Made by a program: the position numbers and the translations under genes. The notes under the pieces are model-generated. The model was not told the DNA's origin and searched no databases. It saw nothing but the letters and a program-made list of their open reading frames with translations. Shown one piece after another: positions 13,084 through 26,171 of a DNA stretch of 64,000 bases. The stretch spans positions 3,224,001-3,288,000 of the forward strand of contig NZ_CP139781.1 in the NCBI RefSeq assembly GCF_019679435.2, in the 5' to 3' direction. The first letter of the stretch is position 1; every line of letters starts with the position of its first letter. This stretch comes from Actomonas aquatica (GTDB taxonomy: Bacteria > Verrucomicrobiota > Verrucomicrobiia > Opitutales > Opitutaceae).

Positions 13084-15102
13084 ATGTCCGCATCACTTCC
13101 CCCGCCCTCCCGCCTCCGCCACCACTGGCTGTCCCGGCTGCTGCTTACCGGCCTCCTCGCCAGCCTGGTCTCCGCCCAGACCATCACCGTCCGCAACCTG
13201 CGCGACACCGGTCCCTCCGCCAACCGTCTGAACGTCGTCATCCTCGGCGACGGTTTCACCGGGGCCCAGGAGACCGCGTTCTTCAACGAGGCCACGTGGG
13301 CGCTCAGCGCCATCGTCAATGATCCCGCACTGCAGCCGTTCTACGAATATATCAACGCGACCGCCATCTTCACCGAGAGCGCCGAAGCCGGCACCCGCAT
13401 CCCCGCCGAGAACCTGACCCCCGACACCTACTTCGGCGCCTCCTTCACCGACGGCGACGATTCCCGGTTGGTGTATATCCAAAACAGCGCCGGCCAATCC
13501 AAAGTCTACGACCTGCTGCTGCAGCACGTGCCGGACTACGACTACGTGGTGCTCTTGATCAACAGCACCCGCTACGGCGGCGCCGGAGGGTTTCCCATGA
13601 CGGCCACCCTGCATTCGAGTTCCGCCGAAATCCTGCTCCACGAGAGCGGTCACAGCTTCGCGGGACTGACCGACGAATATGTCGACGAGGCCAACGCCGA
13701 CTACTACCCGATTGCCGAATTCGCCAACAGCACTTCGAACCCCACCCGTGAATCGTTGCCGTGGCGCAAGTTCGTCGATGACGGCACCCCGATTCCCACC
13801 ACCTCTTCGTTCAGCACCGCCATCACCAGCATCGGCGCGTATGAAGGCAGCCACTACCGCAGCACCGGCCAGTTCCGTCCCGTCTACGACTCCAAGATGC
13901 GCTCCCTCAACCGCCCGTGGGGCGCCGTCAACCTGCGCGCCTTCAGCGAGAGTGTTCACGCCCTCAACCTCGAACAGGCCACCGAACTCCCCGACATCAT
14001 CAGCGAACCCGACCCGAGTCTCTACACCCCCGGAAGCCTCCTCTCCTTCTACGTCAACGCCTCCAGCCCCGGCCCACTCTCTTACCAATGGATCAAGGAC
14101 GGCCGCTACCTGCCCGAAGCTCAGTCGCTCAGCCTCGATCTCGGCGTCGTCTCCGCCCTCGAATACGGCGTCTACACCGTGGAGATCACCAACGCCGTCG
14201 GCACCACCACCTCGCGAGCCATCGCACTGGACGCCAACGGTGCGCGCTTCCTCGAGGACGATCCGGCTCCCTCGGATCCCAATGGACGCCTCACCAACCT
14301 CTCGGTCCTCTCCATCGCCGGCTCCGGCGAGCAAACGCTCACCCTCGGCTTCGCCGTCGACAACGCCTTGGACGGCGCGACCAAACAACTGCTCGTCCGC
14401 GCCATCGGCCCTGGTCTCAGCCGCTTCGAGGTGCCCAACACCATTGGCGACCCGTTCCTCACCGTGGCCCCCCTCGGCTCCAGCACCAGCGAGACCAACG
14501 ACAATTGGGGCGGCAGTTCCGAATTCGCCAACATCTTTGCCATGGTTGGCGCCTTCGCCCTCGAGGATGCCGCCAGCACCGACTCCGTTCTGCGCGTCAC
14601 CGCACCCAAGCTGCCACACACCGCCCAAGTCAGCAACCGCCTCCTCAGCACGGGCCGCGCTCTGATTGAGGTTTACGATCTCGACGGTCTTTCCTCCCCG
14701 CGACTCGTCAACCTCTCCGCCCGCAGCGCGCTCAGCCCTGGTGCCCCCTCGCTCGTCGGCGGTTTTGTCTACGAGGGTTCGGCCCCCAAGCGTTTCTTGA
14801 TTCGCGCCGTGGGACCGAGCTTGAGCCAGTTCAATATCGGCAACCCGCTGCCCGATCCCACGCTCACAATTCACTCCGCGTTGACCGGATCCGTCGTCGC
14901 GACCAACGACGACTGGAATGGCGACGACGCGCTGGCGGCGGCGTTCGATTCCGTGGGCGCGTTTGGCTTCAGCGACACCACCTCCGCCGACTCCGCCCTT
15001 ATCATCGAATTGGCCAACGGCCCCTACACCGCGACGATTTCCCCCGCTCCCGGCAGCGACACGTCCGGCACGGTGTTGATCGAGGTTTACGAATTGCCCT
15101 GA
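13084..15102 (+). CDS. Exported M64-family metallopeptidase, copy 1
   Basis: A 672-residue secreted protein. The signal peptide (RLLLTGLLASLVSAQ) ends near residue 30. Residues about 35-300 match the peptidase M64 (IgA peptidase) family: NVVILGDGF near the start, and the zinc site HESGHSFAGLTDEY with His186, Glu187, His190 and a following Asp. An Ig-like domain follows (about 325-380, SYQWIKDG ... YGVYTVEITNAVG). Two copies of a roughly 120-residue module come next, each with LVRAIGPGLSRF or LIRAVGPSLSQF, a DP motif and a TNDNW or TNDDW motif. The protein ends EVYELP. It is closely similar along its whole length to the gene at 16363, so the two are duplicates. The substrate is unknown. Confidence 0.9.
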   Translation: MSASLPPPSRLRHHWLSRLLLTGLLASLVSAQTITVRNLRDTGPSANRLNVVILGDGFTGAQETAFFNEATWALSAIVNDPALQPFYEYINATAIFTESAEAGTRIPAENLTPDTYFGASFTDGDDSRLVYIQNSAGQSKVYDLLLQHVPDYDYVVLLINSTRYGGAGGFPMTATLHSSSAEILLHESGHSFAGLTDEYVDEANADYYPIAEFANSTSNPTRESLPWRKFVDDGTPIPTTSSFSTAITSIGAYEGSHYRSTGQFRPVYDSKMRSLNRPWGAVNLRAFSESVHALNLEQATELPDIISEPDPSLYTPGSLLSFYVNASSPGPLSYQWIKDGRYLPEAQSLSLDLGVVSALEYGVYTVEITNAVGTTTSRAIALDANGARFLEDDPAPSDPNGRLTNLSVLSIAGSGEQTLTLGFAVDNALDGATKQLLVRAIGPGLSRFEVPNTIGDPFLTVAPLGSSTSETNDNWGGSSEFANIFAMVGAFALEDAASTDSVLRVTAPKLPHTAQVSNRLLSTGRALIEVYDLDGLSSPRLVNLSARSALSPGAPSLVGGFVYEGSAPKRFLIRAVGPSLSQFNIGNPLPDPTLTIHSALTGSVVATNDDWNGDDALAAAFDSVGAFGFSDTTSADSALIIELANGPYTATISPAPGSDTSGTVLIEVYELP

Positions 15103-15166
15103 GCGGCCTCCGCGCACTCCGCAAAAAACCGCCCGGTTTCACCGCGCGGTCGGGTCAAGCTGGCGT

Positions 15167-15202
15167 GCTCCTGCCGTCCTGTTCGCAGGACGGTTGAGGA
15201 GC
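15167..15202 (+). terminator. Hairpin with TTCG loop after M64 gene
   Basis: CCGTCCTG and CAGGACGG form a perfect 8-bp stem closed by TTCG. An outer GCTCCT/AGGAGC stem extends it. It lies about 65 bases after the M64 stop. There is no T-run, so it may be an RNA-stabilising or Rho-assisted structure rather than a simple terminator. Confidence 0.5.
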
Positions 15203-15243
15203 CGCGCAGCTGGTGCATCACATCGACTCGGAGCAGCAACCGC

Positions 15244-15468
15244 TCAATCGATGCGCAGGTATTTTTCCGCCGGAATCTTGAAACGGTGCCCTGAGTCCAG
15301 ATCCGTGAAAATGTGCCAGTGCGGATCGTCTGTCTTGTGCACCGCGACCTCTAGTTTTTGGCCCGGTTCGTAGTGGTATTCCGACGCGACCAAGACGTGG
15401 TCTTCATGTTCGATCGCTTCACCCAACTCGCCGCTGTGCGGCTCCTTAATTTCAATATGCCAGTGCAT
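15244..15468 (-). CDS. Small conserved-looking protein, unknown function
   Basis: A 74-residue protein starting MHWHIEIKEP, using the ATG at 15468 rather than a 12-residue-longer frame. The sequence is mixed alpha/beta and polar (VASEYHYEPGQKLEVAVHK, HWHIFTDLDSGHRFKI), with no signal peptide or membrane helix and two HWH triplets. It has the composition of a real small folded protein, unlike the Arg/Pro-rich shadow frames around it. I do not recognise the family. It sits between two M64 genes on the opposite strand, and 223 bases without a gene separate it from the next reading frame. Confidence 0.6.
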   Translation of the reverse strand: MHWHIEIKEPHSGELGEAIEHEDHVLVASEYHYEPGQKLEVAVHKTDDPHWHIFTDLDSGHRFKIPAEKYLRID

Positions 15469-15691
15469 GGGAGGTATGGGGTTATGCCTTCCACTGGCTC
15501 TCACACGAAGGGCGGGGAGCCAGCTTCGGCGTTACGGGGGATGCCGCTGACCATGACCGCCCCCTGCGCCCACGTCGATTCCCCTCATCGCGCAGTTTCT
15601 GCCAAACAAAGCGCACCCCCTGCATCCTCCGGGAACCTCCCTCCCTCAAGGGAGTCGACTCCTCCCTTCGCCCACCTAATCCTCCCACCTC

Positions 15692-16366
15692 TTGCCGAGC
15701 TTCCCCCCGCCATCCGCTTCTTCTTCAACCCGCCGACGCCTCGTCGGACTGGTCGTGCTGCTGCTGCTCTTGGTCGGCGCGGGCTTCATGCTACTTCGCC
15801 CGCCGCCGCGTCCGGCCACGGCGTCCACTCCGGCCACCGACACCCCATCCGCCGACATCACCTCGGATCGTCCGGCCACGGGTGCCTCAGCACCCTCGCC
15901 CGCTCCGCTCGACTCGCCAGACGCATCCACCACCACGGTCGATCTCGCCACCGAATTGACGACCAACCTCCAACCCGGACGGATTGCCTTTCTCACGCTG
16001 TCCATCGATCCCACCGCCGGCACCGCCCAACTCACCGCCGCCCGCGGCTCCGCCGGACGCGCCAAAGCACTGCCCGTCCGGCCGCGGCCCGGTTACCTGC
16101 GCGTCGACGCGTTCGACGCGTCGGGTGCACTCACTTTTTCCGCCTCCGTGCCGGACCCAACCAATCGCCATCTCGAGCACCCCAGCGCCGAGGACCCCCA
16201 CCAACTCACCACCACCGTAATCCGCGATCCGGACGCACCGCTGCACCTGCGCCTGCCCGGGGAATCCCAAGCCACCCGCCTCATTCTCTATCGCCTCTCC
16301 CCCGATGCGCCCTCCGCCACCGCGCCGTGGGCTCCTTTTGCCACCGTGACGCTTCCTCGCTCATGA
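15692..16366 (+). CDS. Membrane-anchored protein coupled to M64 copy 2
   Basis: A 224-residue protein with a short Ser/Pro-rich cytoplasmic tail, RRR, then one strong transmembrane helix (about 17-35, LVGLVVLLLLLVGAGFMLL). A Pro/Thr/Ser-rich linker and a beta-rich extracytoplasmic domain (about 85-224) follow. It ends in an ATGA overlap with the second M64 gene, so the two are translationally coupled. No counterpart precedes M64 copy 1. It could be an anchor or partner for the peptidase, but I recognise no family. Confidence 0.6.
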   Translation: MPSFPPPSASSSTRRRLVGLVVLLLLLVGAGFMLLRPPPRPATASTPATDTPSADITSDRPATGASAPSPAPLDSPDASTTTVDLATELTTNLQPGRIAFLTLSIDPTAGTAQLTAARGSAGRAKALPVRPRPGYLRVDAFDASGALTFSASVPDPTNRHLEHPSAEDPHQLTTTVIRDPDAPLHLRLPGESQATRLILYRLSPDAPSATAPWAPFATVTLPRS

Positions 16367-18351
16367 TCTCTCGTATTCCCGACGCCCTTCGCCTGCTGTT
16401 CCTCATTGGCCTGACCACCGCGTTCGCCTCCGCCCAGACCGCCACCGTGCGCAGCCTGCGTGACACCGGTCCCTCCGCCCAGCGCATCAATTTCGTCATC
16501 CTCGGCGATGGCTTCACCGCCGCTCAGGAAAACAGCTTCTTCACCGCCGCCGAAAACGCCGTAACCACCCTGCTCACCGACGAGGCCTTCGCCCCCTTCG
16601 CCGACCTCATCAACGCCACCGCCATCTTCACCGCCAGTGCCGAAGCCGGCACCACCATCCCGGCCGAGAACCTTGCCCCGGACACCTACTTCCGCAGCAC
16701 CTTTTCCGAGGGTGAGTTCTCCCGCCTCGTTTACATCGACGACCCCACCGGCCGCGCCCGCGTCAACGACCTGCTCTTCACCCACACGCCCGACTACGAC
16801 CACGTCGTGATGCTCGTAAATACCCCGCGCTACGGCGGCGGCGGCGGGTTCCCCCTCTGCGTCACCTTGCACGAAAGCACCGCTGGCGTGCTCCTCCACG
16901 AGAGCGGACACAGCTTCGCCGGTCTCGCCGACGAATACGTCGATGAGGAAATCGCCGACGACTACCCGCCCAACGAATACCCCAACAGCACCGCCGAAAA
17001 CACCCGTGAACGCCTGCCCTGGCGCCGCTTCGTGAGCGACACCACGCCCGTCCCCACCACCGAAAGCTTCAGCACCGACATCTCCATCATCGGCGCCTTC
17101 GAAGGCAGCTACTACCGCAGCACCGGATATTACCGCCCCGTCTTCGCCTCCAAGATGCGCGACCACACGCAACCGTGGGGCGCCGTCAACCTCCGCGCCT
17201 TCGCCAACGCCGTGCACCAACTCGACCTCAACCAGGCCGAGCTGCCGCCCTTCGTGGCCAACCTCTCCGTGCCCGACAACTACACCCCCGGCTCCCCCCT
17301 CGTTCTCTCCGCCACCGCCCAGGGCGTCGGCCCCTTCACCTACCAGTGGACGAAGGACAACCGCTTCATCATCGGCCAAACCGACGCCGCCCTCAACCTC
17401 GGCAACGGCAGCCCGTCCACCTACGGCACCTACACCCTCGAGATCACCAACGCCGCCGGCACCACCCGCTCCCGCACGGTCATCGTCGACGCCTCCGGCG
17501 CACGTATCGAGGAACAGGATACAAGCGGCGTCGGCCGCCTTACCAACCTCTCGGTCCGCACCCTCGCCGGTCCGGCTTCCTCGCCCCTCACCCTCGGCTT
17601 CACCATCGACCAAGGCTCCGCCGGCGCGACCAAGGAGCTGCTCGTGCGCGCCGTCGGCCCCGGTCTCGCCATCTTCGAAGTGGCCAACTACCTCGGCGAC
17701 CCGCAGCTCTCCATCGGTGCCCTCGGCAGCAGTGACCCGCGCGTGCGGAACGACAACTGGGGCGGAGACGCCGCACTCAGCGACGCCTTCACGCGCGTCG
17801 GCGCCTTCCCCCTCGACGACCCCGACAGCGGCGACGCCGCCGTGCTGCTCTCCGCCCTGCAACGCCCGCACACCGCCCAAGTCACCAGCACCCTCGAAGG
17901 CATCTCCGGTATCACTTTGGTGGAAGTCTACGACACCGAAGACCAAGCCTCCCCGCGCTTGGTCAACCTCTCCGCGCGGGCCGCCATCGATCCCATCAAC
18001 CCGATCCTCGTCGCCGGCTTCGTCTACGCGGGCGACGCGCCGAAACGTTTCCTCATCCGCGCCATCGGCCCAGGACTCGCGACCTACCACGTGCCCGACT
18101 TGCTCGAGGATCCGCAGCTGGTGGTTCGCTCTCTCACCACCGGCCAGATCGTCGCCGCCAACGACAACTGGGCCGGCTCCGACGAACTCGCCGCCGCCTT
18201 CGCCGCCGTCGGCGCCTTCCCGCTGACCGATCCCGATTCGACCGATGCCGCCCTCATCATCGAACTCGAGAGCGGCCCCTACACCGCCACCGTTTCGCCC
18301 ACCGCCTTCGGCTTCGGCACCGTGCTCGTCGAAGTTTACGAACTGCCCTGA
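16363..18351 (+). CDS. Exported M64-family metallopeptidase, copy 2
   Basis: A 662-residue paralogue of the gene at 13084. I take the ATG at 16363 (ATGA overlap with the preceding gene). The open frame extends about 1 kb upstream but is Arg/His-rich noise there. The signal peptide (LLFLIGLTTAFASAQ) ends near residue 25. The zinc site is HESGHSFAGLADEY with His179, Glu180, His183. An Ig-like domain (TYQWTKDNRFI) and two copies of the LVRAVGPGL/NDNW module follow, ending EVYELP. The domain order is the same as in copy 1 and similarity runs the full length. The last 16 bases overlap the convergent MFS gene. Confidence 0.9.
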   Translation: MISRIPDALRLLFLIGLTTAFASAQTATVRSLRDTGPSAQRINFVILGDGFTAAQENSFFTAAENAVTTLLTDEAFAPFADLINATAIFTASAEAGTTIPAENLAPDTYFRSTFSEGEFSRLVYIDDPTGRARVNDLLFTHTPDYDHVVMLVNTPRYGGGGGFPLCVTLHESTAGVLLHESGHSFAGLADEYVDEEIADDYPPNEYPNSTAENTRERLPWRRFVSDTTPVPTTESFSTDISIIGAFEGSYYRSTGYYRPVFASKMRDHTQPWGAVNLRAFANAVHQLDLNQAELPPFVANLSVPDNYTPGSPLVLSATAQGVGPFTYQWTKDNRFIIGQTDAALNLGNGSPSTYGTYTLEITNAAGTTRSRTVIVDASGARIEEQDTSGVGRLTNLSVRTLAGPASSPLTLGFTIDQGSAGATKELLVRAVGPGLAIFEVANYLGDPQLSIGALGSSDPRVRNDNWGGDAALSDAFTRVGAFPLDDPDSGDAAVLLSALQRPHTAQVTSTLEGISGITLVEVYDTEDQASPRLVNLSARAAIDPINPILVAGFVYAGDAPKRFLIRAIGPGLATYHVPDLLEDPQLVVRSLTTGQIVAANDNWAGSDELAAAFAAVGAFPLTDPDSTDAALIIELESGPYTATVSPTAFGFGTVLVEVYELP

Positions 18352-19570: not shown

Positions 19571-19623
19571 CTGACAATTTCTTACAACTGCCTGACAACT
19601 CCTCCCCGCCCCTCTGCTAGAGT
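19571..19623 (+). promoter_or_regulatory. Direct-repeat operator and promoter of VWA/HK/RR operon
   Basis: Three heptamers, CTGACAA (19571), CTTACAA (19581) and CTGACAA (19592), lie 10 and 11 bases apart on one helix face. A TAGAGT -10-like hexamer begins 26 bases after the start of the last heptamer. OmpR/PhoB-family regulators bind such 11-bp direct repeats, and the operon encodes one. A matching array precedes the gene at 24495. Function is inferred. Confidence 0.6.
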
Positions 19624-19633
19624 CGCCCCCTCC

Positions 19634-21016
19634 ATGCTCGACCGCCCGTTCCGCTTTCTCTGCCGCCTGCTCGCGACCACCGTCGTCGCCAGCACCGTCG
19701 GCCTGCACGGCGCCGAGCTTCAGCTCGAGCTCAGCTCCGAACGCGGATTCTACCCCGAGGCCACCGAATCCGAAATCTTCGTCGCCGCCCGGATCCTCCC
19801 GCCTCCCGCCCCCGCCAACGCCCGCCCCGCCCCGCGCAACCTCGCCCTCGTGCTCGATGTGTCCGGCTCCATGGCCGGTGAACCCATCCAAGCCCTGCGC
19901 ACCGCCACCCTCGCCACCCTCGACCGCCTGCAGGATCACGAAACCCTCGCCGTCGTCGCGTTCGGCTCCGAGGTCTCCACGCCGCTGCCCGCGACCCGCG
20001 TCGACCAAGCGCGCACCCAAACCGACGCCCTCACCCAGCTCGAACCCGCCGGCGGCGCCGCCCTCTACGACGCCCTCAACCAAGGCGCCGCCCAACTCCG
20101 CCGCTTCGCCACCCCCACCACGCGCGATGAACTCATCCTGCTCGTCGATGGTCCACCCACCCGCGGCCCCCGCGAGGCCGACGACTTTCTGCGCCTCGCC
20201 AGCGCCCTCGCCCGCGAGGGCATCCGCCTCACCACCATCGGTCTCGGCGCCGACTTCGATGAAGACCTGCTCGCCGCCCTCGCCCGCACCGGCGGTGGCC
20301 GCTTCCTCTACGCGCCCACCCCCGCCGACCTCCAGTCCACGCTCGCCCAGGCCGTCACCACCTCGACCGCCACCGCGCCCGTCGCCCGCGACCTCACGCT
20401 CACCCTCACCTTCAAACCCTACTTCAATACCCTCAACCCCCACGGTCGCATTCCCGCCGAGTCCACTCCCACGCAACTCACCTACTCCCTGCCCGACCTC
20501 GCCCCCGGCCAGCCCGTTGCCTTGCTCGCATCCGCCACCATCTGGAACGCCTACGCCGCCGTCGGCCACCAACCCGCCGCCGTCACCGCCCAACTCACCT
20601 GGCGCGATCTCAACGCCCCGGCCGACGCTCCCGCCCGCACCACCTCCGCCGACCTTGACCTCCGATTCAGCGCCGACGCCCGCACCGTAAAGGAATCGAC
20701 CCACGACGAAACCTTCCGCCTCGCCGTCGACACGCTCATCACCGACGGCCTGCAGGACGCCATCGGCCACATCGACGACGGCGATTTCAACCGCGCCCAA
20801 CGCACCCTGCGCCGCACCCGCACTCGCGTGCACGACCTCGCCGTCACCCGCGAAGACGACGCCATCGCCGCCCGCCTCGTCGCCCTCGACACCTACCTCG
20901 CCGAAGTCGCCGCCCGCGGCCTCAACCAACTCGATCGCAAAATCCTGCGCTCCGGTCTCTCCAACGCCTTCGCCCCGCCCGCCGCGGACGACGACAACGA
21001 GGACGCTCCCCGCTGA
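19634..21016 (+). CDS. Exported VWA-domain protein
   Basis: A 460-residue exported protein. I take the ATG at 19634, which gives a signal peptide (FRFLCRLLATTVVASTVGLHGAE); the frame extends upstream through the promoter. A von Willebrand factor A domain spans about residues 55-240, with the metal-binding MIDAS motif DVSGSMAG and a later LLVDGPPTRG strand. The MIDAS Asp and both Ser are intact, so divalent metal and ligand binding is plausible. The C-terminal 200 residues form a beta-rich region and a helical tail (RAQRTLRRTRTRV). It is the first gene of an operon with a histidine kinase (2-base gap) and a response regulator, so it may be part of the sensory machinery or a target of it. Confidence 0.85.
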   Translation: MLDRPFRFLCRLLATTVVASTVGLHGAELQLELSSERGFYPEATESEIFVAARILPPPAPANARPAPRNLALVLDVSGSMAGEPIQALRTATLATLDRLQDHETLAVVAFGSEVSTPLPATRVDQARTQTDALTQLEPAGGAALYDALNQGAAQLRRFATPTTRDELILLVDGPPTRGPREADDFLRLASALAREGIRLTTIGLGADFDEDLLAALARTGGGRFLYAPTPADLQSTLAQAVTTSTATAPVARDLTLTLTFKPYFNTLNPHGRIPAESTPTQLTYSLPDLAPGQPVALLASATIWNAYAAVGHQPAAVTAQLTWRDLNAPADAPARTTSADLDLRFSADARTVKESTHDETFRLAVDTLITDGLQDAIGHIDDGDFNRAQRTLRRTRTRVHDLAVTREDDAIAARLVALDTYLAEVAARGLNQLDRKILRSGLSNAFAPPAADDDNEDAPR

Positions 21017-21018
21017 CC

Positions 21019-22524
21019 ATGCCCCCCTCGCGCACGCGCTTCCGGCAGGTTCTACCGTGGCTGATCCTCAGCCTCCTCGCCGTTGGCGCCGTCATCGCGC
21101 TGGCCCTGCTCCACTTCACCACCACCAGAACGCTGCACGACGAAGGTAACCGCGCCCGCGACAGCGCTGCTGCCGAGTTCGAACAACGCGCCACTCAATA
21201 CCTGCGCACCACCCGCCTCGCCGTCTTGGCCGAGTTGATCGCCTTCCACGAGGAAGGCCTCGCCTACGCCTTGGAGCGCTGGAACGAATCCAACGAAGTC
21301 GTCGTGGACACCTTCCTTCTCCCCCCCGGCGAACGCGTTCCCGCGCACATCGATGCCCACTCGCACGAGATTGAAGTCAAACCCCTGACCGCTCTTCCCG
21401 ACCTGCCGAGCGACCTCGGCTACCAGGACGAGAACCTCGAAAACATCCGCTACGCGGGCCGCACCGCCCACCCCATCGCCGGCTTCGCCGCGTCCCGCGA
21501 GGACCCGGATGCCCCTTGGGTCATCTGGTATCGCGCCGGCCCCAGCGAACCGATCCGTGGTGCCATGGTGGATACAACCCCGATCATGGCCGAGCTGCAG
21601 ACGCTGTTGCCCGACCCCACCGTCGCCCACGTCGACTCCCTCTACCACCGCCTCGAACCCAACCTAAAACTGCCGGGGTTCCCCGCCCGCAACTTCGGGT
21701 TCTCGCTGGGCACCCTGGCGCAGAACCGACTGGAAACGGCCAACCACATCGGCCTCGTCGCCGGCCTCCTCCTCGCCGGCCTCATCACCGGCGTCGCCCT
21801 GCTCGTGCGCCAAAGCCAACGCAACACCCGCGACGCCCTGCGTAAAACCACCTTCGTCTCACTCGTCTCCCACGAGCTGCGCACCCCCATCACCTCCATC
21901 CGCATGTTCGCCGACATGCTGGCCGACCCCGCCCTCCCCGCCGCCAAACGCGAAAAATTCACCGCCACCATCCAACGCGAATCCACCCGCCTCGGTCACC
22001 TCATCGAACGCCTGCTCGCCTTCAACGCCCTCGAAAAAGGTCTGCCCCCGCCGCCCCGGCACCCCGTCGAACTCACCGCCCTCATCCGCGAAACCATCGA
22101 CACCGCCACCCCGCCCCTCACCGCCGCCGGCCTCACCCCTGAGCTCACCCTGCCCACCACCCCCGTCACCCTCGCCACCGACGCCGAGACCGTGCGCCAG
22201 GCCCTGCTCAACCTGCTCGACAACGCCGCCAAATACGCCCCGTCGTCCGGCCCCCTGCGTATCCAACTTTCCACGACCGACGTCCACGCCACCCTCACTG
22301 TCACTGACCAGGGGCCCGGTGTCCCCTTCTCCCAGCGCGAGCGCATCTTCGAAGCCTTTGTCCAGGGTCACGACCGCCTCACCGACAAACAACCCGGCCT
22401 CGGTCTCGGCCTCGCGCTCTCCCGCGCCGCTCTGCGCACCATCGGCGGCGACCTCACCGTTGCCCCCAATTTTCCCGCCGATCTCCCCGGAGCCACCTTC
22501 ACCATCCGGCTGCCCCTCGCATGA
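21019..22524 (+). CDS. Membrane sensor histidine kinase (PhoR/BaeS type)
   Basis: A 501-residue kinase: TM1 (about 11-31, LPWLILSLLAVGAVIALALL), an extracytoplasmic sensor of about 210 residues, TM2 (about 243-262, GLVAGLLLAGLITGVALLV), then the catalytic part. HisKA has FVSLVSHELRTPITSIRMF with the acceptor at His285. The HATPase has the N box (LLDNAAKYAP), G1 (DQGPGVP) and G2 (GLGLGLAL). No HAMP domain is obvious. It lies 2 bases after the VWA gene and overlaps the response regulator start (ATGA), so all three are co-expressed. What it senses is unknown; the operator in front of the operon hints at a PhoR-like role. Confidence 0.92.
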   Translation: MPPSRTRFRQVLPWLILSLLAVGAVIALALLHFTTTRTLHDEGNRARDSAAAEFEQRATQYLRTTRLAVLAELIAFHEEGLAYALERWNESNEVVVDTFLLPPGERVPAHIDAHSHEIEVKPLTALPDLPSDLGYQDENLENIRYAGRTAHPIAGFAASREDPDAPWVIWYRAGPSEPIRGAMVDTTPIMAELQTLLPDPTVAHVDSLYHRLEPNLKLPGFPARNFGFSLGTLAQNRLETANHIGLVAGLLLAGLITGVALLVRQSQRNTRDALRKTTFVSLVSHELRTPITSIRMFADMLADPALPAAKREKFTATIQRESTRLGHLIERLLAFNALEKGLPPPPRHPVELTALIRETIDTATPPLTAAGLTPELTLPTTPVTLATDAETVRQALLNLLDNAAKYAPSSGPLRIQLSTTDVHATLTVTDQGPGVPFSQRERIFEAFVQGHDRLTDKQPGLGLGLALSRAALRTIGGDLTVAPNFPADLPGATFTIRLPLA

Positions 22525-23264
22525 CCCCGCCTCCCACCCGCCACGTCCTCATCGTCGAAGACGACGAAGCCATTCGCGAAGCCCTCACCGCCGCGCTCGA
22601 ACTCGACGGCCACCGCACCAGCGCCGCCGCCACCGGACCGGCCGGCGTGGAACTCGCCACCACCCAGCGCTTCGACCTCATCCTGCTCGATCTTATGCTG
22701 CCCGGTCTCAGCGGCTACGACGTCTGCCGCCGCATCCGCGAACACGACCGCGACGTGCCCATCCTCATGGTCACCGCCAAAGCCGACGAAATCGACAAAG
22801 TGCTCGGCCTCGAACTCGGCGCCGACGACTACATCACCAAACCCTTCGGCACCCGCGAACTCCTCGCCCGCGTCCACGTCGCCCTGCGCCGCAGCGACCG
22901 CCGCGCCGAGCTCGTCGCGTCTCCGCCCGATCCCAGCCAGACGCCCCAGCCGACGTCCACGACCGACACCTTCGCCTTCGCCCACGCCACCATCGACCGC
23001 AAACGCTTCACCGCCCGCCGCGACGACGGTTCCAGCACGGAACTCTCGGCCAAGGAACTGCACCTCATCGAGTGCTTCCAAGCGCACCGCGGCGAAGTCC
23101 TCTCGCGCGAAGCGCTGCTCAACACGGTCTGGGGCGTCGACTACCTCGGCACCACCCGCACCCTCGACCAGCACCTCGCTCAAGTGCGCAAAAAAGTCGA
23201 AGACCCCGATCGTCCCAAGACCCTCAAAACGATCCACGGCATCGGCTACCAATACCTCGCATGA
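22521..23264 (+). CDS. OmpR/PhoB-family response regulator
   Basis: A 247-residue DNA-binding regulator. The receiver (1-120) has the acidic pair (VEDDE), acceptor Asp57 in LLDLMLPG, Thr in MVTAK and Lys107 in ITKPFG. A Pro/Thr linker (about 130-145) leads to a winged-helix domain (about 150-247) with LSAKELHLIECFQAHRGEVLSREALLNTVWG and the recognition helix region TRTLDQHLAQVRKKVE, all typical of the OmpR/PhoB group. It is the cognate partner of the upstream kinase by coupling (ATGA). Members of this group bind direct repeats spaced 11 bp apart, matching the arrays upstream of this operon and of the gene at 24495. Confidence 0.94.
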   Translation: MTPPPTRHVLIVEDDEAIREALTAALELDGHRTSAAATGPAGVELATTQRFDLILLDLMLPGLSGYDVCRRIREHDRDVPILMVTAKADEIDKVLGLELGADDYITKPFGTRELLARVHVALRRSDRRAELVASPPDPSQTPQPTSTTDTFAFAHATIDRKRFTARRDDGSSTELSAKELHLIECFQAHRGEVLSREALLNTVWGVDYLGTTRTLDQHLAQVRKKVEDPDRPKTLKTIHGIGYQYLA

Positions 23265-23281
23265 GCCCCAACGGGGCTCCC

Positions 23282-23405
23282 CCTCTTTCTCTTTCGTCTT
23301 TATCTTTCTCTTTATCCCCACCGGCCGAACCCCGCTCGCCTACCGAACGCGGCGACACTCCGTGTCGTCAGAGAAAGATAAAGATAAAGACGAAAGAGAA
23401 AGAGG
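23282..23405. repeat. 26-bp perfect inverted repeat
   Basis: Arms at 23282-23307 and 23380-23405 are perfect reverse complements (pyrimidine-rich CCTCTTTCTC start), about 72 bases apart. A second small hairpin (CGACAC/GTGTCG) lies at 23353-23367 inside. It begins just after the response regulator stop and could fold into a long terminal RNA hairpin. Confidence 0.8.
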
Positions 23406-23422
23406 CTCAGCCGCCCTTCCAG

Positions 23423-23460
23423 GTGTAGCAGCGGCCGTCTCGGCCGCTCCCCCCTGCCCC
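23423..23460. repeat. REP-like palindromic repeat, copy 1
   Basis: A 38-bp unit, GTGTAGC then the palindrome GCGGCCG-tct-CGGCCGC and a C-rich tail, is repeated with one mismatch at 23594. Three other small palindromes lie between the copies: 23474-23487 (GCGAGC/GCTCGC), 23496-23509 (GTTCG/CGAAC) and 23556-23574 (CGCGGGCG/CGCCCGCG). This is typical of REP-type intergenic clusters. Confidence 0.75.
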
Positions 23461-23593
23461 TCCGGCCGCTAGCGCGAGCAAGCTCGCAGCCTACAGTTCG
23501 TATTCGAACCCTCCTCGGAAGCCGCGCCCTCAGACCCGCTTCCCCCTCCACCGAACGCGGGCGACACGCCCGCGGCTACATTCCCCCATCCAA

Positions 23594-23631
23594 GTGTAGC
23601 CGCGGCCGTCTCGGCCGCTCCCCCCTGCCCC
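23594..23631. repeat. REP-like palindromic repeat, copy 2
   Basis: Same 38-bp unit as at 23423, differing at one base (GTGTAGCC in place of GTGTAGCA), in the same orientation. Confidence 0.75.
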
Positions 23632-23656
23632 ACCGCCCCACCACAACCCAACCCCT

Positions 23657-23744
23657 CACCACATGTTCGTAATACGAACATTCACCGTAACACTCTATGA
23701 ATAAGTTACTTATCATCCATTGTTCGTATTACGAACATGTGGTG
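23657..23744. repeat. 88-bp nested palindrome with 24-bp perfect arms
   Basis: Arms at 23657-23680 and 23721-23744 are perfect reverse complements. Each arm contains a smaller palindrome, TGTTCGT-AAT-ACGAACA or its complement. The 40-base centre is AT-rich compared with the surroundings and has no reading frame worth naming. It may be a small inverted-repeat element (MITE-like), a recombination site or a paired operator. From 23745 to 23895 I see nothing further. Confidence 0.7.
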
Positions 23745-23895
23745 GGCGCGTTTTGGGGCGGCTTGCGAGGGTGCGAGGGAGGAAGGGCGGGGAGGCCGGT
23801 TGCGCTCTGCTGCCGGGGTGGGCCGCGGGAACGCGGGTTAGGGCCTGCCAGGGAAAGCCCCAGGCTTTTGTCGAGTTGCGCGGATCCAGGCGCGC

Positions 23896-24306
23896 TTAGC
23901 CCATGGGACTGCAGATCTCGATGAGGTGACCGTCGGGGTCACGCACGTAGGCCACCATTTGTCCCCACGGTTTGGATACGGGGGCCGTAAACGCCTCCGC
24001 TCCGCTGGCCACGGCATGGGCAAAGGCCGCCTCCACTTCCGTCGTGACGAAACCGATTTCCACGCCCTGCGGTGCTGCGCCGCGCGCCGGCATCGCGGGC
24101 GCTTGGCCCAGCACGTCCTCCGCCTGCGCCTGACTCACCAGACCCAACTTGGTCGAGCCGGTATCGAGCTCGCCGTAAGCCTTGTCTCCCTCCACGTGCA
24201 ACATCGTGCGCGTGAGCCCAAACGCCGTTTCGTAGAACGCCATCGAGGCGGCGGCATCACGCACATAGAGAAGAATGTATCCGAGGGAGAGAGAAGGAGC
24301 ACTCAT
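23896..24306 (-). CDS. VOC (glyoxalase-fold) family protein
   Basis: A 136-residue protein of the vicinal oxygen chelate superfamily. I take the ATG at 24306 (MSAPSLSLGYILLYVRD). The family pattern is clear: YVRDAAASMAFYETAFGL at the start, a YGELDTGSTKLGLV strand, and VAYVRDPDGHLIEICSP at the end, where the Glu of IEIC is a usual metal ligand. A full-length single-domain VOC protein of this type can be a glyoxalase-like lyase, a dioxygenase or an antibiotic resistance protein; no specific activity can be assigned. It is divergent from the second VWA gene, so the direct-repeat array lies in their shared upstream region. Confidence 0.87.
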   Translation of the reverse strand: MSAPSLSLGYILLYVRDAAASMAFYETAFGLTRTMLHVEGDKAYGELDTGSTKLGLVSQAQAEDVLGQAPAMPARGAAPQGVEIGFVTTEVEAAFAHAVASGAEAFTAPVSKPWGQMVAYVRDPDGHLIEICSPMG

Positions 24307-24361
24307 GGTGCCTCGAACGCTGCCGCACGGCCCCCATTCGGTCCACTCCCATTCCCGCTTT

Positions 24362-24435
24362 CTGACAATCCACTGACACCTTTGCACAAACTCTTACCTC
24401 CCTCTGACAACGACCACGCGGAGTCCCGGTAGAGT
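24362..24435 (+). promoter_or_regulatory. Direct-repeat operator and promoter of second VWA gene
   Basis: Heptamers CTGACAA (24362), CTGACAC (24373), TGCACAA (24383), CTTACCT (24393) and CTGACAA (24404) are spaced 10-11 bases apart. TAGAGT at 24430 begins exactly 26 bases after the start of the last heptamer, the same spacing as in front of the gene at 19634. CTTAC-N6-CTGACAAC is shared by both. A common PhoB-type regulator is inferred. Confidence 0.62.
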
Positions 24436-24494: not shown

Positions 24495-26171
24495 ATGAAG
24501 CTCCCCTTCCTCCGCCAAGTCACTGCCACGACGCTCGCTGCTTTATTGACCTGTCCTGCTCCCGCCCTCCTCGCGCAAACCGCTTCGCCGCCTCCGGCAG
24601 ACGAAGAGGACGAGGAGCTCATCATTCTATCGCCTTTCATGGTATCGGCCGGCAGCGGGGGTAGCTACGCCGCCACATCAACGCTCGCAGGTTCCAGCAT
24701 GGGTGCCACCGCCGGTGGCGCGCAGGACATCAACTACTTCCGCTCCGGCGCCGGTCGCGGAGAGGTGCCGCACCCGGATACCATCACCGCCGAAGGGCTC
24801 TTCTCCGAATACGATCTGCCGCTCGACCTCGGACACACCTCGCCCGAACTTTTTGTCGTGCAAGCCGCCGCCGCGCCCGCGCGCTTTGAGGTCCTGCCCG
24901 AGGTCACCCACCTGGCCCAACTCGGCTTCAGCTCCGGCCTCGCCGCCGCCACGTGGGAACGGGCCCCGCTCAACCTCGTCGCCGTGATCGATAAGTCCGG
25001 CTCGATGGCCGGCCACCCGTTGGACCTCGTGCGCCAGAGCCTGCAACAGGTGCTGCGGCAACTCGGTCCCGGCGACCAATTGAGCATCGTGCTCTACGGC
25101 GACCGCGCTCACGTCCACCAACCCGTTACGCGCGTCGCGGCCCACACGCGCCATCTGCTTGAACGCGCGATCCGCTCCATCCGCTCGAACGGCTCGACCA
25201 ACATGGAGGAGGGACTGCAGGTCGGCTATCAGGTGGCGCGGGAGTCCGCCCGCGATTTCGCCGGCACCACTCGCGTGATGCTCTTCACCGACGAGCGCCC
25301 GAACGTCGGCGACACCTCGCCGGAAAGTTTTATGGGTATGGCGCGCGCCGCTTCGACCGACGGCATCGGCCTCACCACCATCGGCGTGGGCGTGCACTTT
25401 GGCACCGCGCTGGCCGAGCAACTCTCCAGCGTGCGCGGCGGCAACTTGTTCTTCTTCCCCGACGAAGCGGAAATGCTGACCACCTTCACCGAGGACTTCG
25501 ACACCATGGTCACGGAGCTCGCTCACGACTTCTCCGTGCGCATCCGCCCGGCGCGCGGCTTCCGCATCGCCGGCGTGTTTGGACTGCCCGCCGACCTGCT
25601 CCGCTGGGAAGGCAACGACCTCGTGTTTACGGTGAACACGATCTTCCTCAGCAAGCGCAAGGGCGGCATCTACTTCGCCCTCAGCCACGAGGGCGAAAAG
25701 GCGCGCGGTTACTTGCCGGCTAGCCCTGCCCGCCCCGGCGACCGCGTGGCCCAGATCGACTTCAGCTACTCCGAAACCGAAGCCGGGCGCACCGTGCGCG
25801 CCCAGTCTGACGTGCGCCTACAGCACCCTCGCGATCTGCAGGCCGGACTCACCCGCGGTCGCGCGCTCGTCGACGAATTTCTCACCCTGCGCCGTGCGGC
25901 CTCCGCGCACCTCTTCGACAACGACCAGGAAACCGCCTTCCAACTCACCGCCGACCTCGTGCGCCGCCTCGAACGCATCGACGACCCAGCGCTCGACCCC
26001 GAACGCACCCTCGCCGCCAACGTGCACCAGACCTTCGCCGAGCTCTCCGGCAATACTGTCGAACTGATTTGCGGTCTGTCGATTGAGGTCATCGACGAGG
26101 TCGACGATGACGGCATGCCCCACCGCGAGGTGCCGGTCGACAACCTCACCGGACTGCCTTCCCGCCGCTGA
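24495..26171 (+). CDS. Exported VWA-domain protein with TonB-receptor-like N-terminus
   Basis: A 558-residue exported protein. A signal peptide ends at about residue 28 (LLAQ). Residues about 40-75 read EELIILSPFMVSAG, then YAATSTLAGSSMG, which resembles the segment before the plug of Verrucomicrobia TonB-dependent receptors. GGAQDINYFR and the HPDTITAEGLFSEYDLPL block lead into a VWA domain (about 155-345) with MIDAS motif DKSGSMAG and a LFTDERPNVGD strand. The C-terminal region is like that of YfbK-type VWA proteins (LTRGRALVDEFLTLRRAA). It has a PhoB-type array in front, identical in layout to that of the VWA/kinase operon. Its ligand is unknown. Confidence 0.86.
   Translation: MKLPFLRQVTATTLAALLTCPAPALLAQTASPPPADEEDEELIILSPFMVSAGSGGSYAATSTLAGSSMGATAGGAQDINYFRSGAGRGEVPHPDTITAEGLFSEYDLPLDLGHTSPELFVVQAAAAPARFEVLPEVTHLAQLGFSSGLAAATWERAPLNLVAVIDKSGSMAGHPLDLVRQSLQQVLRQLGPGDQLSIVLYGDRAHVHQPVTRVAAHTRHLLERAIRSIRSNGSTNMEEGLQVGYQVARESARDFAGTTRVMLFTDERPNVGDTSPESFMGMARAASTDGIGLTTIGVGVHFGTALAEQLSSVRGGNLFFFPDEAEMLTTFTEDFDTMVTELAHDFSVRIRPARGFRIAGVFGLPADLLRWEGNDLVFTVNTIFLSKRKGGIYFALSHEGEKARGYLPASPARPGDRVAQIDFSYSETEAGRTVRAQSDVRLQHPRDLQAGLTRGRALVDEFLTLRRAASAHLFDNDQETAFQLTADLVRRLERIDDPALDPERTLAANVHQTFAELSGNTVELICGLSIEVIDEVDDDGMPHREVPVDNLTGLPSRR

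What the first reader, a model, noticed from the sequence alone, without database searches (positions are those of the whole stretch)
19571..24435. Two VWA promoters share PhoB-type direct repeats with identical spacing
Upstream of the VWA/kinase/regulator operon, heptamers lie at 19571, 19581 and 19592 (CTGACAA, CTTACAA, CTGACAA). Upstream of the separate VWA gene they lie at 24362, 24373, 24383, 24393 and 24404. In both, CTTAC-N6-CTGACAAC is conserved and TAGAGT begins exactly 26 bases after the start of the last heptamer. OmpR/PhoB-family regulators are known to bind 11-bp direct repeats, and E. coli pstS boxes include a CTTACAT variant. The regulator encoded between the sites is of this family. 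This suggests an autoregulated VWA-centred regulon, possibly phosphate-linked. The -10 spacing is longer than in E. coli Pho promoters, so the details differ.
Basis: partly seen in the sequence, partly recalled or inferred. Interest (0 to 1): 0.75.

Follow-up and report, generated by a model that had tools for sequence, protein, structure and literature searches.

The report
Shared regulator sites before VWA genes
Two neighbouring genes for exported proteins carry the same row of repeated DNA signals, and such rows sit in front of similar genes in many related bacteria that also own the neighbouring control gene, so they are most likely that control protein's landing sites for switching on a set of cell-envelope proteins, not a phosphate-starvation switch.

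Summary
They belong to an OmpR/PhoB-type regulon. In 61 family genomes the 4 x 11-bp array occurs in 23, all among the 26 with a close homologue of the encoded regulator, and in 0 of the other 35. In 63 arrays matched without a -10 in the pattern, TWNANT starts 26 bases after the last heptamer in 22, against at most 2 at any other offset. Of 82 distinct sites classified, 48 precede VWA-domain genes, 3 VIT genes, others alpha-2-macroglobulin, DUF4139 or unknown proteins. No classified first gene was recognised as a phosphate gene; the regulator scores 175-180 bits against PhoB (cut-off 296), and a better PhoB/PhoR candidate lies elsewhere. Best reading: the VWA-kinase-regulator operon controls itself and the nearby VWA2 gene through these arrays. 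"VWA-centred, autoregulated" is supported; "phosphate-linked" is not. Binding and signal are inferred.

The parts
19571..19598 (+). Array A: three heptamers (19571, 19581, 19592), spacing 10 and 11
   Evidence: read; only exact match of its kind besides array B in the genome; arrays conserved in relatives
19615..19623 (+). Extended -10-like element TGC-TAGAGT; TAGAGT (19618) starts 26 bases after the last heptamer
   Evidence: offset 26 is the conserved one in relatives; no sigma-70 -35/-10 consensus pair found at the array
19634..21016 (+). VWA1: VWA-domain protein, 460 aa, exported by the look of its N-terminus, first gene of the operon
   Evidence: Pfam VWA_3/VWA; start chosen at ATG 19634, downstream of the promoter elements
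21019..22524 (+). Histidine kinase (HisKA, HATPase_c; two apparent membrane segments around a region of about 200 aa)
   Evidence: Pfam; homologues in the same operon position; membrane segments read by eye
22521..23264 (+). OmpR/PhoB-family response regulator, proposed to bind both arrays
   Evidence: Response_reg and Trans_reg_C; GTTRTLDQH stretch invariant in the 26 sequences aligned
24362..24410 (+). Array B: five heptamers (24362, 24373, 24383, 24393, 24404), spacing 11, 10, 10, 11
   Evidence: chance test; same array type before VWA2-type genes in relatives
24430..24435 (+). -10-like TAGAGT, 26 bases after the start of the last heptamer
24495..26171 (+). VWA2: VWA protein, 558 aa, exported by the look of its N-terminus, with an LSPF motif at residue 45
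   Evidence: Pfam VWA; LSPF

Best explanation
The heptamer arrays are binding sites of the OmpR/PhoB-family response regulator encoded at 22521-23264. Phosphorylated regulator binds head to tail on the 10-11-bp repeats, with the last heptamer in place of a normal -35 element. It recruits RNA polymerase to an extended -10 element that starts 26 bases after the last heptamer. At site A it activates its own operon (VWA1-kinase-regulator); at site B it activates the neighbouring VWA2 gene. The system is a small regulon for exported VWA-type envelope proteins. In relatives the same kind of array also stands before alpha-2-macroglobulin-like, VIT-domain and DUF4139 genes, which suggests an envelope-damage or protease-defence role. 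Shown: the sites, their conservation, fixed promoter geometry, target genes and co-occurrence with the regulator. Inferred: binding, activation rather than repression, the signal and the biological role.
For: Array A lies directly upstream of the regulator's own operon; VWA1 and kinase genes are 2 bp apart, kinase and regulator overlap by 4 bp. The order VWA - kinase - regulator (sometimes with an extra gene) is seen in 14 of the 16 relatives' loci examined; L034 is cut by its contig end and L038 shows no VWA match. In the 14 loci whose upstream DNA was printed, 13 have the array. Co-occurrence: 23 of 23 array genomes have the regulator; 0 of 35 genomes without a regulator match at E <= 1e-60 have the array; Fisher p = 6.9e-14, not corrected for shared ancestry. 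The 3 regulator genomes without that pattern (G000, G008, G029) carry the 10/11-bp variant. The proposed DNA-reading stretch is invariant in 26 aligned homologues. Fixed geometry: TWNANT at offset 26 in 22 of 63 sites against at most 2 at other offsets; G-n-NWNNNT at 26 in 52 of 63 against at most 8 elsewhere. 48 of 82 distinct sites precede VWA-domain genes (Pfam checks of examples), while the whole own genome has only 10 PF00092 matches. A same-genus locus fetched for its VWA similarity also carries the array (L050).
Against: No binding or expression data. In the own genome only two sites exist, and 8 of 10 PF00092 genes lack the array, so here it is a two-promoter local circuit. It is patchy: of 8 genomes of the genus, the window-type array is in 1, the own, and VWA2 matches at E <= 1e-20 in 2, the own and a partial one in G063. 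13 of 82 sites precede other, unknown or unusable genes; in L038 the array stands before a 409-aa protein without a Pfam match. In G008 the VWA1 operon itself has no clear array. In one search at most 45 candidates per genome were scored, so some of the 35 'without' could hold a missed homologue. Spacing in the window is 10/11, whereas M. tuberculosis PhoP needs a strict 4-bp spacer (PMC4832192), so the dimer geometry would have to differ.
Confidence: 0.85

Rival explanations
1. The arrays are PHO boxes: the regulator is the organism's PhoB and the VWA genes are part of a phosphate-starvation regulon. (Shares the binding step with the best explanation.)
For: Same protein family and similar direct repeats; E. 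coli PHO box is CTGTCAT in 11-nt units (PMC4415409, passages; PMC4832192). The closest solved structure by sequence is M. tuberculosis RegX3, itself phosphate-linked as far as I recall.
Against: Window regulator 175-180 bits against PhoB TIGR02154 (cut-off 296.2), only 6th in its genome; best PhoB candidate (254 bits) at G000 3855624-3856292, next to a PhoR/PnpS-like kinase (both also under their cut-offs). No first gene recognised as a phosphate gene among 82 classified sites, and no further array sites in the own genome. Heptamer is CTGACAA, not CTGTCAT.
Confidence: 0.05
2. A different regulator of the same family (a paralogue elsewhere in the genome) binds the arrays, and the local kinase-regulator pair acts on other targets.
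For: The own genome has several other full-length regulators of this type.
Against: Co-occurrence of arrays with this regulator's close homologues, position at its own operon in relatives out to other families of the order, invariant DNA-reading stretch.
Confidence: 0.07
3. The two promoters look alike only because VWA1 and VWA2 arose by duplication with their upstream DNA.
For: Both genes encode VWA proteins a few kb apart.
Against: VWA1 and VWA2 are about 31% identical over 191 aa; the upstream regions share no ungapped match longer than 8 bases; the same kind of array precedes unrelated genes (A2M, DUF4139) in relatives.
Confidence: 0.02
4. The arrays are operators for repression by the same regulator. 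(Shares the binding step with the best explanation.)
For: OmpR-family regulators can repress (general knowledge); direction of control is not visible in the sequence.
Against: The array lies upstream of the -10 without overlapping it, no sigma-70 consensus pair is found there, and the last heptamer takes the -35 place at a fixed distance, the layout of an activated promoter.
Confidence: 0.08

Closest known systems
E. coli PhoB / PHO box promoters
   Same: OmpR/PhoB-family regulator; tandem 11-nt direct repeats with 7 conserved bases (PMC4415409, passages); box in the -35 place (recalled)
   Different: Heptamer CTGACAA not CTGTCAT; -10 starts 26 bases after the last heptamer start (about 17 in E. 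coli pstS/phoA, recalled); recognised targets are VWA and other apparent envelope proteins; PhoB cut-off not met
M. tuberculosis PhoP (tandem dimer on 7-bp repeats with 4-bp spacer)
   Same: Head-to-tail repeats of 7-bp motifs; dimer, trimer and tetramer binding described (PMC4832192, passages and discussion)
   Different: Motif TCACAGC there; window uses mixed 10/11 spacing, most relatives 11
Proteobacterial dedicated sortase system (TIGR03785/03787/03788)
   Same: A VWA protein next to a histidine kinase and a response regulator (composition recalled); weak similarity of VWA1 to TIGR03788
   Different: 66 bits against a cut-off of 552 for the VWA protein, 77 against 612 for the kinase; presence of a sortase not tested
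P. aeruginosa mag operon (A2M MagD), GacA-controlled
   Same: Relatives' array targets include A2M and DUF2135 proteins; MagD protects against certain peptidoglycan-attacking T6SS effectors (PMC12663445, passages)
   Different: Different regulator; own genome has no A2M match; that MagC/YfaP carries DUF2135 is recalled, not checked

Membership tests
OmpR/PhoB-family response regulator with tandem-repeat operators | Receiver plus winged-helix Trans_reg_C | tested here: met
   Response_reg 111.1 bits, Trans_reg_C 74 bits
OmpR/PhoB-family response regulator with tandem-repeat operators | Direct repeats of about 7 bp at 10-11-bp spacing in its presumed target promoters | tested here: met
OmpR/PhoB-family response regulator with tandem-repeat operators | Regulator binds the repeats | not testable with these tools
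   co-occurrence only
PhoB / Pho regulon | Meets PhoB equivalog cut-off | tested here: not met
   TIGR02154 180.5 and 175.2 bits, cut-off 296.2
PhoB / Pho regulon | Boxes at pst, pho or phytase genes | tested here: not met
   own genome has only the two window sites; none recognised among first genes of 82 classified sites
PhoB / Pho regulon | Response to phosphate limitation | not testable with these tools
   -
Proteobacterial dedicated sortase system | VWA target and kinase meet TIGR03788 / TIGR03785 | tested here: not met
   66.3 vs 551.65 and 77.3 vs 612.2 bits
Proteobacterial dedicated sortase system | Sortase gene in the cluster | not tested
   no sortase search was run
A2M (mag/yfa) operon | A2M gene present | tested here: not met
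   PF00207: 0 matches in the own genome; present behind arrays in relatives

The most novel reading that the evidence does not exclude
One two-component system runs an envelope-defence regulon whose exported products (VWA, VIT-VWA, alpha-2-macroglobulin and small proteins) share an LSPF motif that works as a TonB box, so that these non-receptor proteins are plugged into, and powered or signalled through, the TonB-ExbBD machinery. The motif sits near the N-terminus, in the middle or at the very C-terminus of 19 distinct target proteins, window VWA2 included. In two VIT-VWA proteins with a plug domain it stands just before the plug, the TonB-box place: residue 653 before a plug from 681 (L034), and 663 before a plug from 693 (L263). 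One MG2-domain target is followed by ExbB- and ExbD-type genes.
Probability: 0.15. Interest if true: 0.75.

Novelty: new member of a known kind. Interest (0 to 1): 0.52.

Why it matters
It gives a sequence-defined, testable regulon for a group of bacteria for which my paper searches found no mapped circuit of this kind. It ties a VWA-kinase-regulator operon found in many genomes of the family to one operator. It also puts VWA, VIT, alpha-2-macroglobulin and DUF4139 proteins, all of poorly known bacterial function, behind a common promoter type, which points to a shared envelope role. The arrays are rare enough (1-3 sites of the 11-bp type per positive genome, 1-6 of the window type) to predict regulon members directly.

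Tried and rejected
A phosphate regulon: rejected as above. Promoter similarity through gene duplication: rejected. Proteobacterial dedicated sortase system: cut-offs not met. First family array pattern had a 1-bp spacing error and found only window-type sites in G029 and G056; corrected. Arrays listed at G140, G337, G293 and G088 (10 rows) were not fetched as regions; those in hand (L209, L210, L211, L225, L226) show no TWNANT at offset 26 and several are overlapping simple repeats; I take them as spurious, but they are counted in the 63. Reversed control: 0, and 3 in one genome (G292) of 387. Structure prediction was not used. Literature: 0 papers; by title, none on this regulon in the listings (2 papers; 12 of 17 listed; 10 of 124 listed; 1 paper, PMC7159879, passages read: it treats other vWA systems); some searches were background searches. 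Only open-licence PMC papers are covered.

Full report
Check of the observation. All coordinates hold. Site A has heptamers at 19571, 19581 and 19592, site B at 24362, 24373, 24383, 24393 and 24404, and TAGAGT begins 26 bases after the last heptamer start at both (19618, 24430). The composite pattern is found twice in the window, both exact, against 0.09 expected. In the 6,109,182-base genome it is found twice at 0 mismatches and twice more at 2 mismatches. A looser array scan gave the two window sites (0 and 2 mismatches) and 8 hits at 3 mismatches against 4 in the control. So in this genome the recognisable set is two promoters, and the other 8 of 10 PF00092 genes do not have it.

Surroundings. 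Site A precedes VWA1 (19634-21016), a histidine kinase (21019-22524) and an OmpR/PhoB-family response regulator (22521-23264), packed as an operon. Site B precedes VWA2 (24495-26171). A glyoxalase-fold gene on the other strand (23896-24306) lies between. A sigma-70 consensus scan finds no -35/-10 pair at either array.

Related genomes. A close homologue of the regulator (E <= 1e-60, at most 45 candidates scored per genome) is in 26 of 61 family genomes. In the 16 loci fetched, VWA1-, kinase- and regulator-like genes stand in the same order in 14; L034 is cut by its contig end and L038 has no VWA match. G008 has VWA1-kinase-regulator-VWA2 in a row. One search printed the upstream DNA of 14 loci: a 4 x 11-bp array is clear in 13 (in L038 before a non-VWA gene), and not clear at the VWA1 gene of G008. 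L033 and L034, whose VWA1 promoters are off the contig, have a window-type array downstream of the regulator gene. The corrected pattern finds 35 sites in 23 of 61 genomes, none in the reversed control. All 23 have the regulator; the 3 regulator genomes without this pattern are G000, G008 and G029, which carry the 10/11-spaced type seen in the window. That type is in 10 of 250 family genomes, up to 6 sites each, control 0. At phylum level 25 of 387 genomes match. Six loci from other families of the order show VWA, kinase and regulator ORFs in a row behind the array (L281, L282, L284, L285, L287, L288, whose output was partly cut). Two genomes of the phylum outside the class have an array before a VWA gene (G200, G219). 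A same-genus locus fetched only for VWA similarity also has an array before a VWA gene followed by a kinase-like ORF (L050).

Promoter geometry. In 40 aligned sites T at +31 is present in 38 and G at +24 in 38. Some of those sites were noticed because of their -10, so I repeated the test on the 63 sites in hand that match the 11-11-11 pattern, which has no -10, made non-redundant by exact sequence only (near-duplicates and overlapping repeats remain): TWNANT at offset 26 in 22, at most 2 at any other offset; G-n-NWNNNT at 26 in 52, at most 8 elsewhere. The last heptamer thus sits near the -35 position, followed by an extended -10.

Targets. One search lists 84 site entries; two are duplicates of the same contig (L261), leaving 82 distinct sites (recount), of which L259 has no ORF and one L274 site only a 55-aa ORF. 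Not classified: the operon sites of G002, G006 and G051 and the 10 rows of G088, G140, G293 and G337. By BLAST to seeds (E <= 1e-5), motif and Pfam the first genes are: VWA1-type 35 (in L101 and L281 the VWA2 seed scored slightly higher), VWA2-type 6, VIT-type 6 (VWA found by Pfam in L034, L263, L267; VIT without a VWA match in L033, L273, L274), a third VWA type 4, A2M 5, DUF4139 6 (L092 by similarity only), a protein of about 1900 aa without a Pfam match in the one scanned (L083) 3, small LSPF proteins 4, other, unknown or unusable 13. VWA-domain genes are therefore 48 of 82. Several sites come from the same genome, and the regions were chosen because they had arrays, so this describes targets and is not an unbiased sample of genes. 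The own genome has no A2M match.

Not Pho. The regulator scores 180.5 bits and 175.2 against PhoB (cut-off 296.2). Five other regulators of the genome score higher, the best 254 bits, next to a kinase with 339 bits to PnpS and 304 to PhoR, also under their cut-offs. A point for the other side: its best solved-structure match is M. tuberculosis RegX3, which is, from memory, itself phosphate-linked. No first gene was recognised as a phosphate gene. Direct repeats are general to this family according to PMC4832192 (passages and discussion read), so they do not point to phosphate.

Mechanism. Most likely the phosphorylated regulator lines up on the repeats and activates both promoters, giving positive autoregulation of the sensor operon and co-expression of VWA2. 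What the kinase senses is unknown. The VWA proteins and the company they keep in relatives (A2M, DUF2135, VIT, DUF4139) point to envelope damage, foreign proteases or contact attack. The nearest tested precedent I found is the P. aeruginosa mag operon, whose A2M protects against some peptidoglycan-attacking T6SS effectors (PMC12663445, passages read) and is described as co-expressed with T6SS and exopolysaccharide operons (PMC5764988, passages read). This functional step is inference.

Results against. The circuit is patchy in its own genus. L038 has the array before a non-VWA gene. L034 (site 2405), L091, L093 (two sites), L095, L096, L266, L269, L271 and L279 have other first genes, though L266 has an MG2 domain. 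The Fisher test treats related genomes as independent. Binding and expression are untested.

Noticed in passing
window 24495-26171 (aa 45); L033, L034, L260, L262, L263, L264, L265, L267, L268, L272, L273, L274, L275, L276: An LSPF motif resembling the segment before TonB plug domains is shared by VWA, VIT-VWA, A2M and small targets, at varying positions including the extreme C-terminus.
   Followed up: partly
L034:6771-12431; L263:1203-6740: Proteins of 1887 and 1846 aa with VIT, VWA and TonB plug domains in one chain, under array promoters.
   Followed up: partly
L266:1060-2279: MotA/ExbB- and ExbD-type genes directly after a target gene with an MG2 domain.
   Followed up: no
window 23658-23743: A perfect 23-bp inverted repeat (ACCACATGTTCGTAATACGAACA and its complement, 40 bases apart) in the spacer between the regulator gene and the glyoxalase gene.
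   Followed up: no
window 23281-23405: A pyrimidine-rich run and its near-complementary purine-rich run just after the regulator gene, seen by eye; possibly a terminator or repeat element.
   Followed up: no
window 13084-18351: Two similar long ORFs in a row (672 aa and 997 aa, the latter probably starting later) that look alike along much of their length by eye.
   Followed up: no
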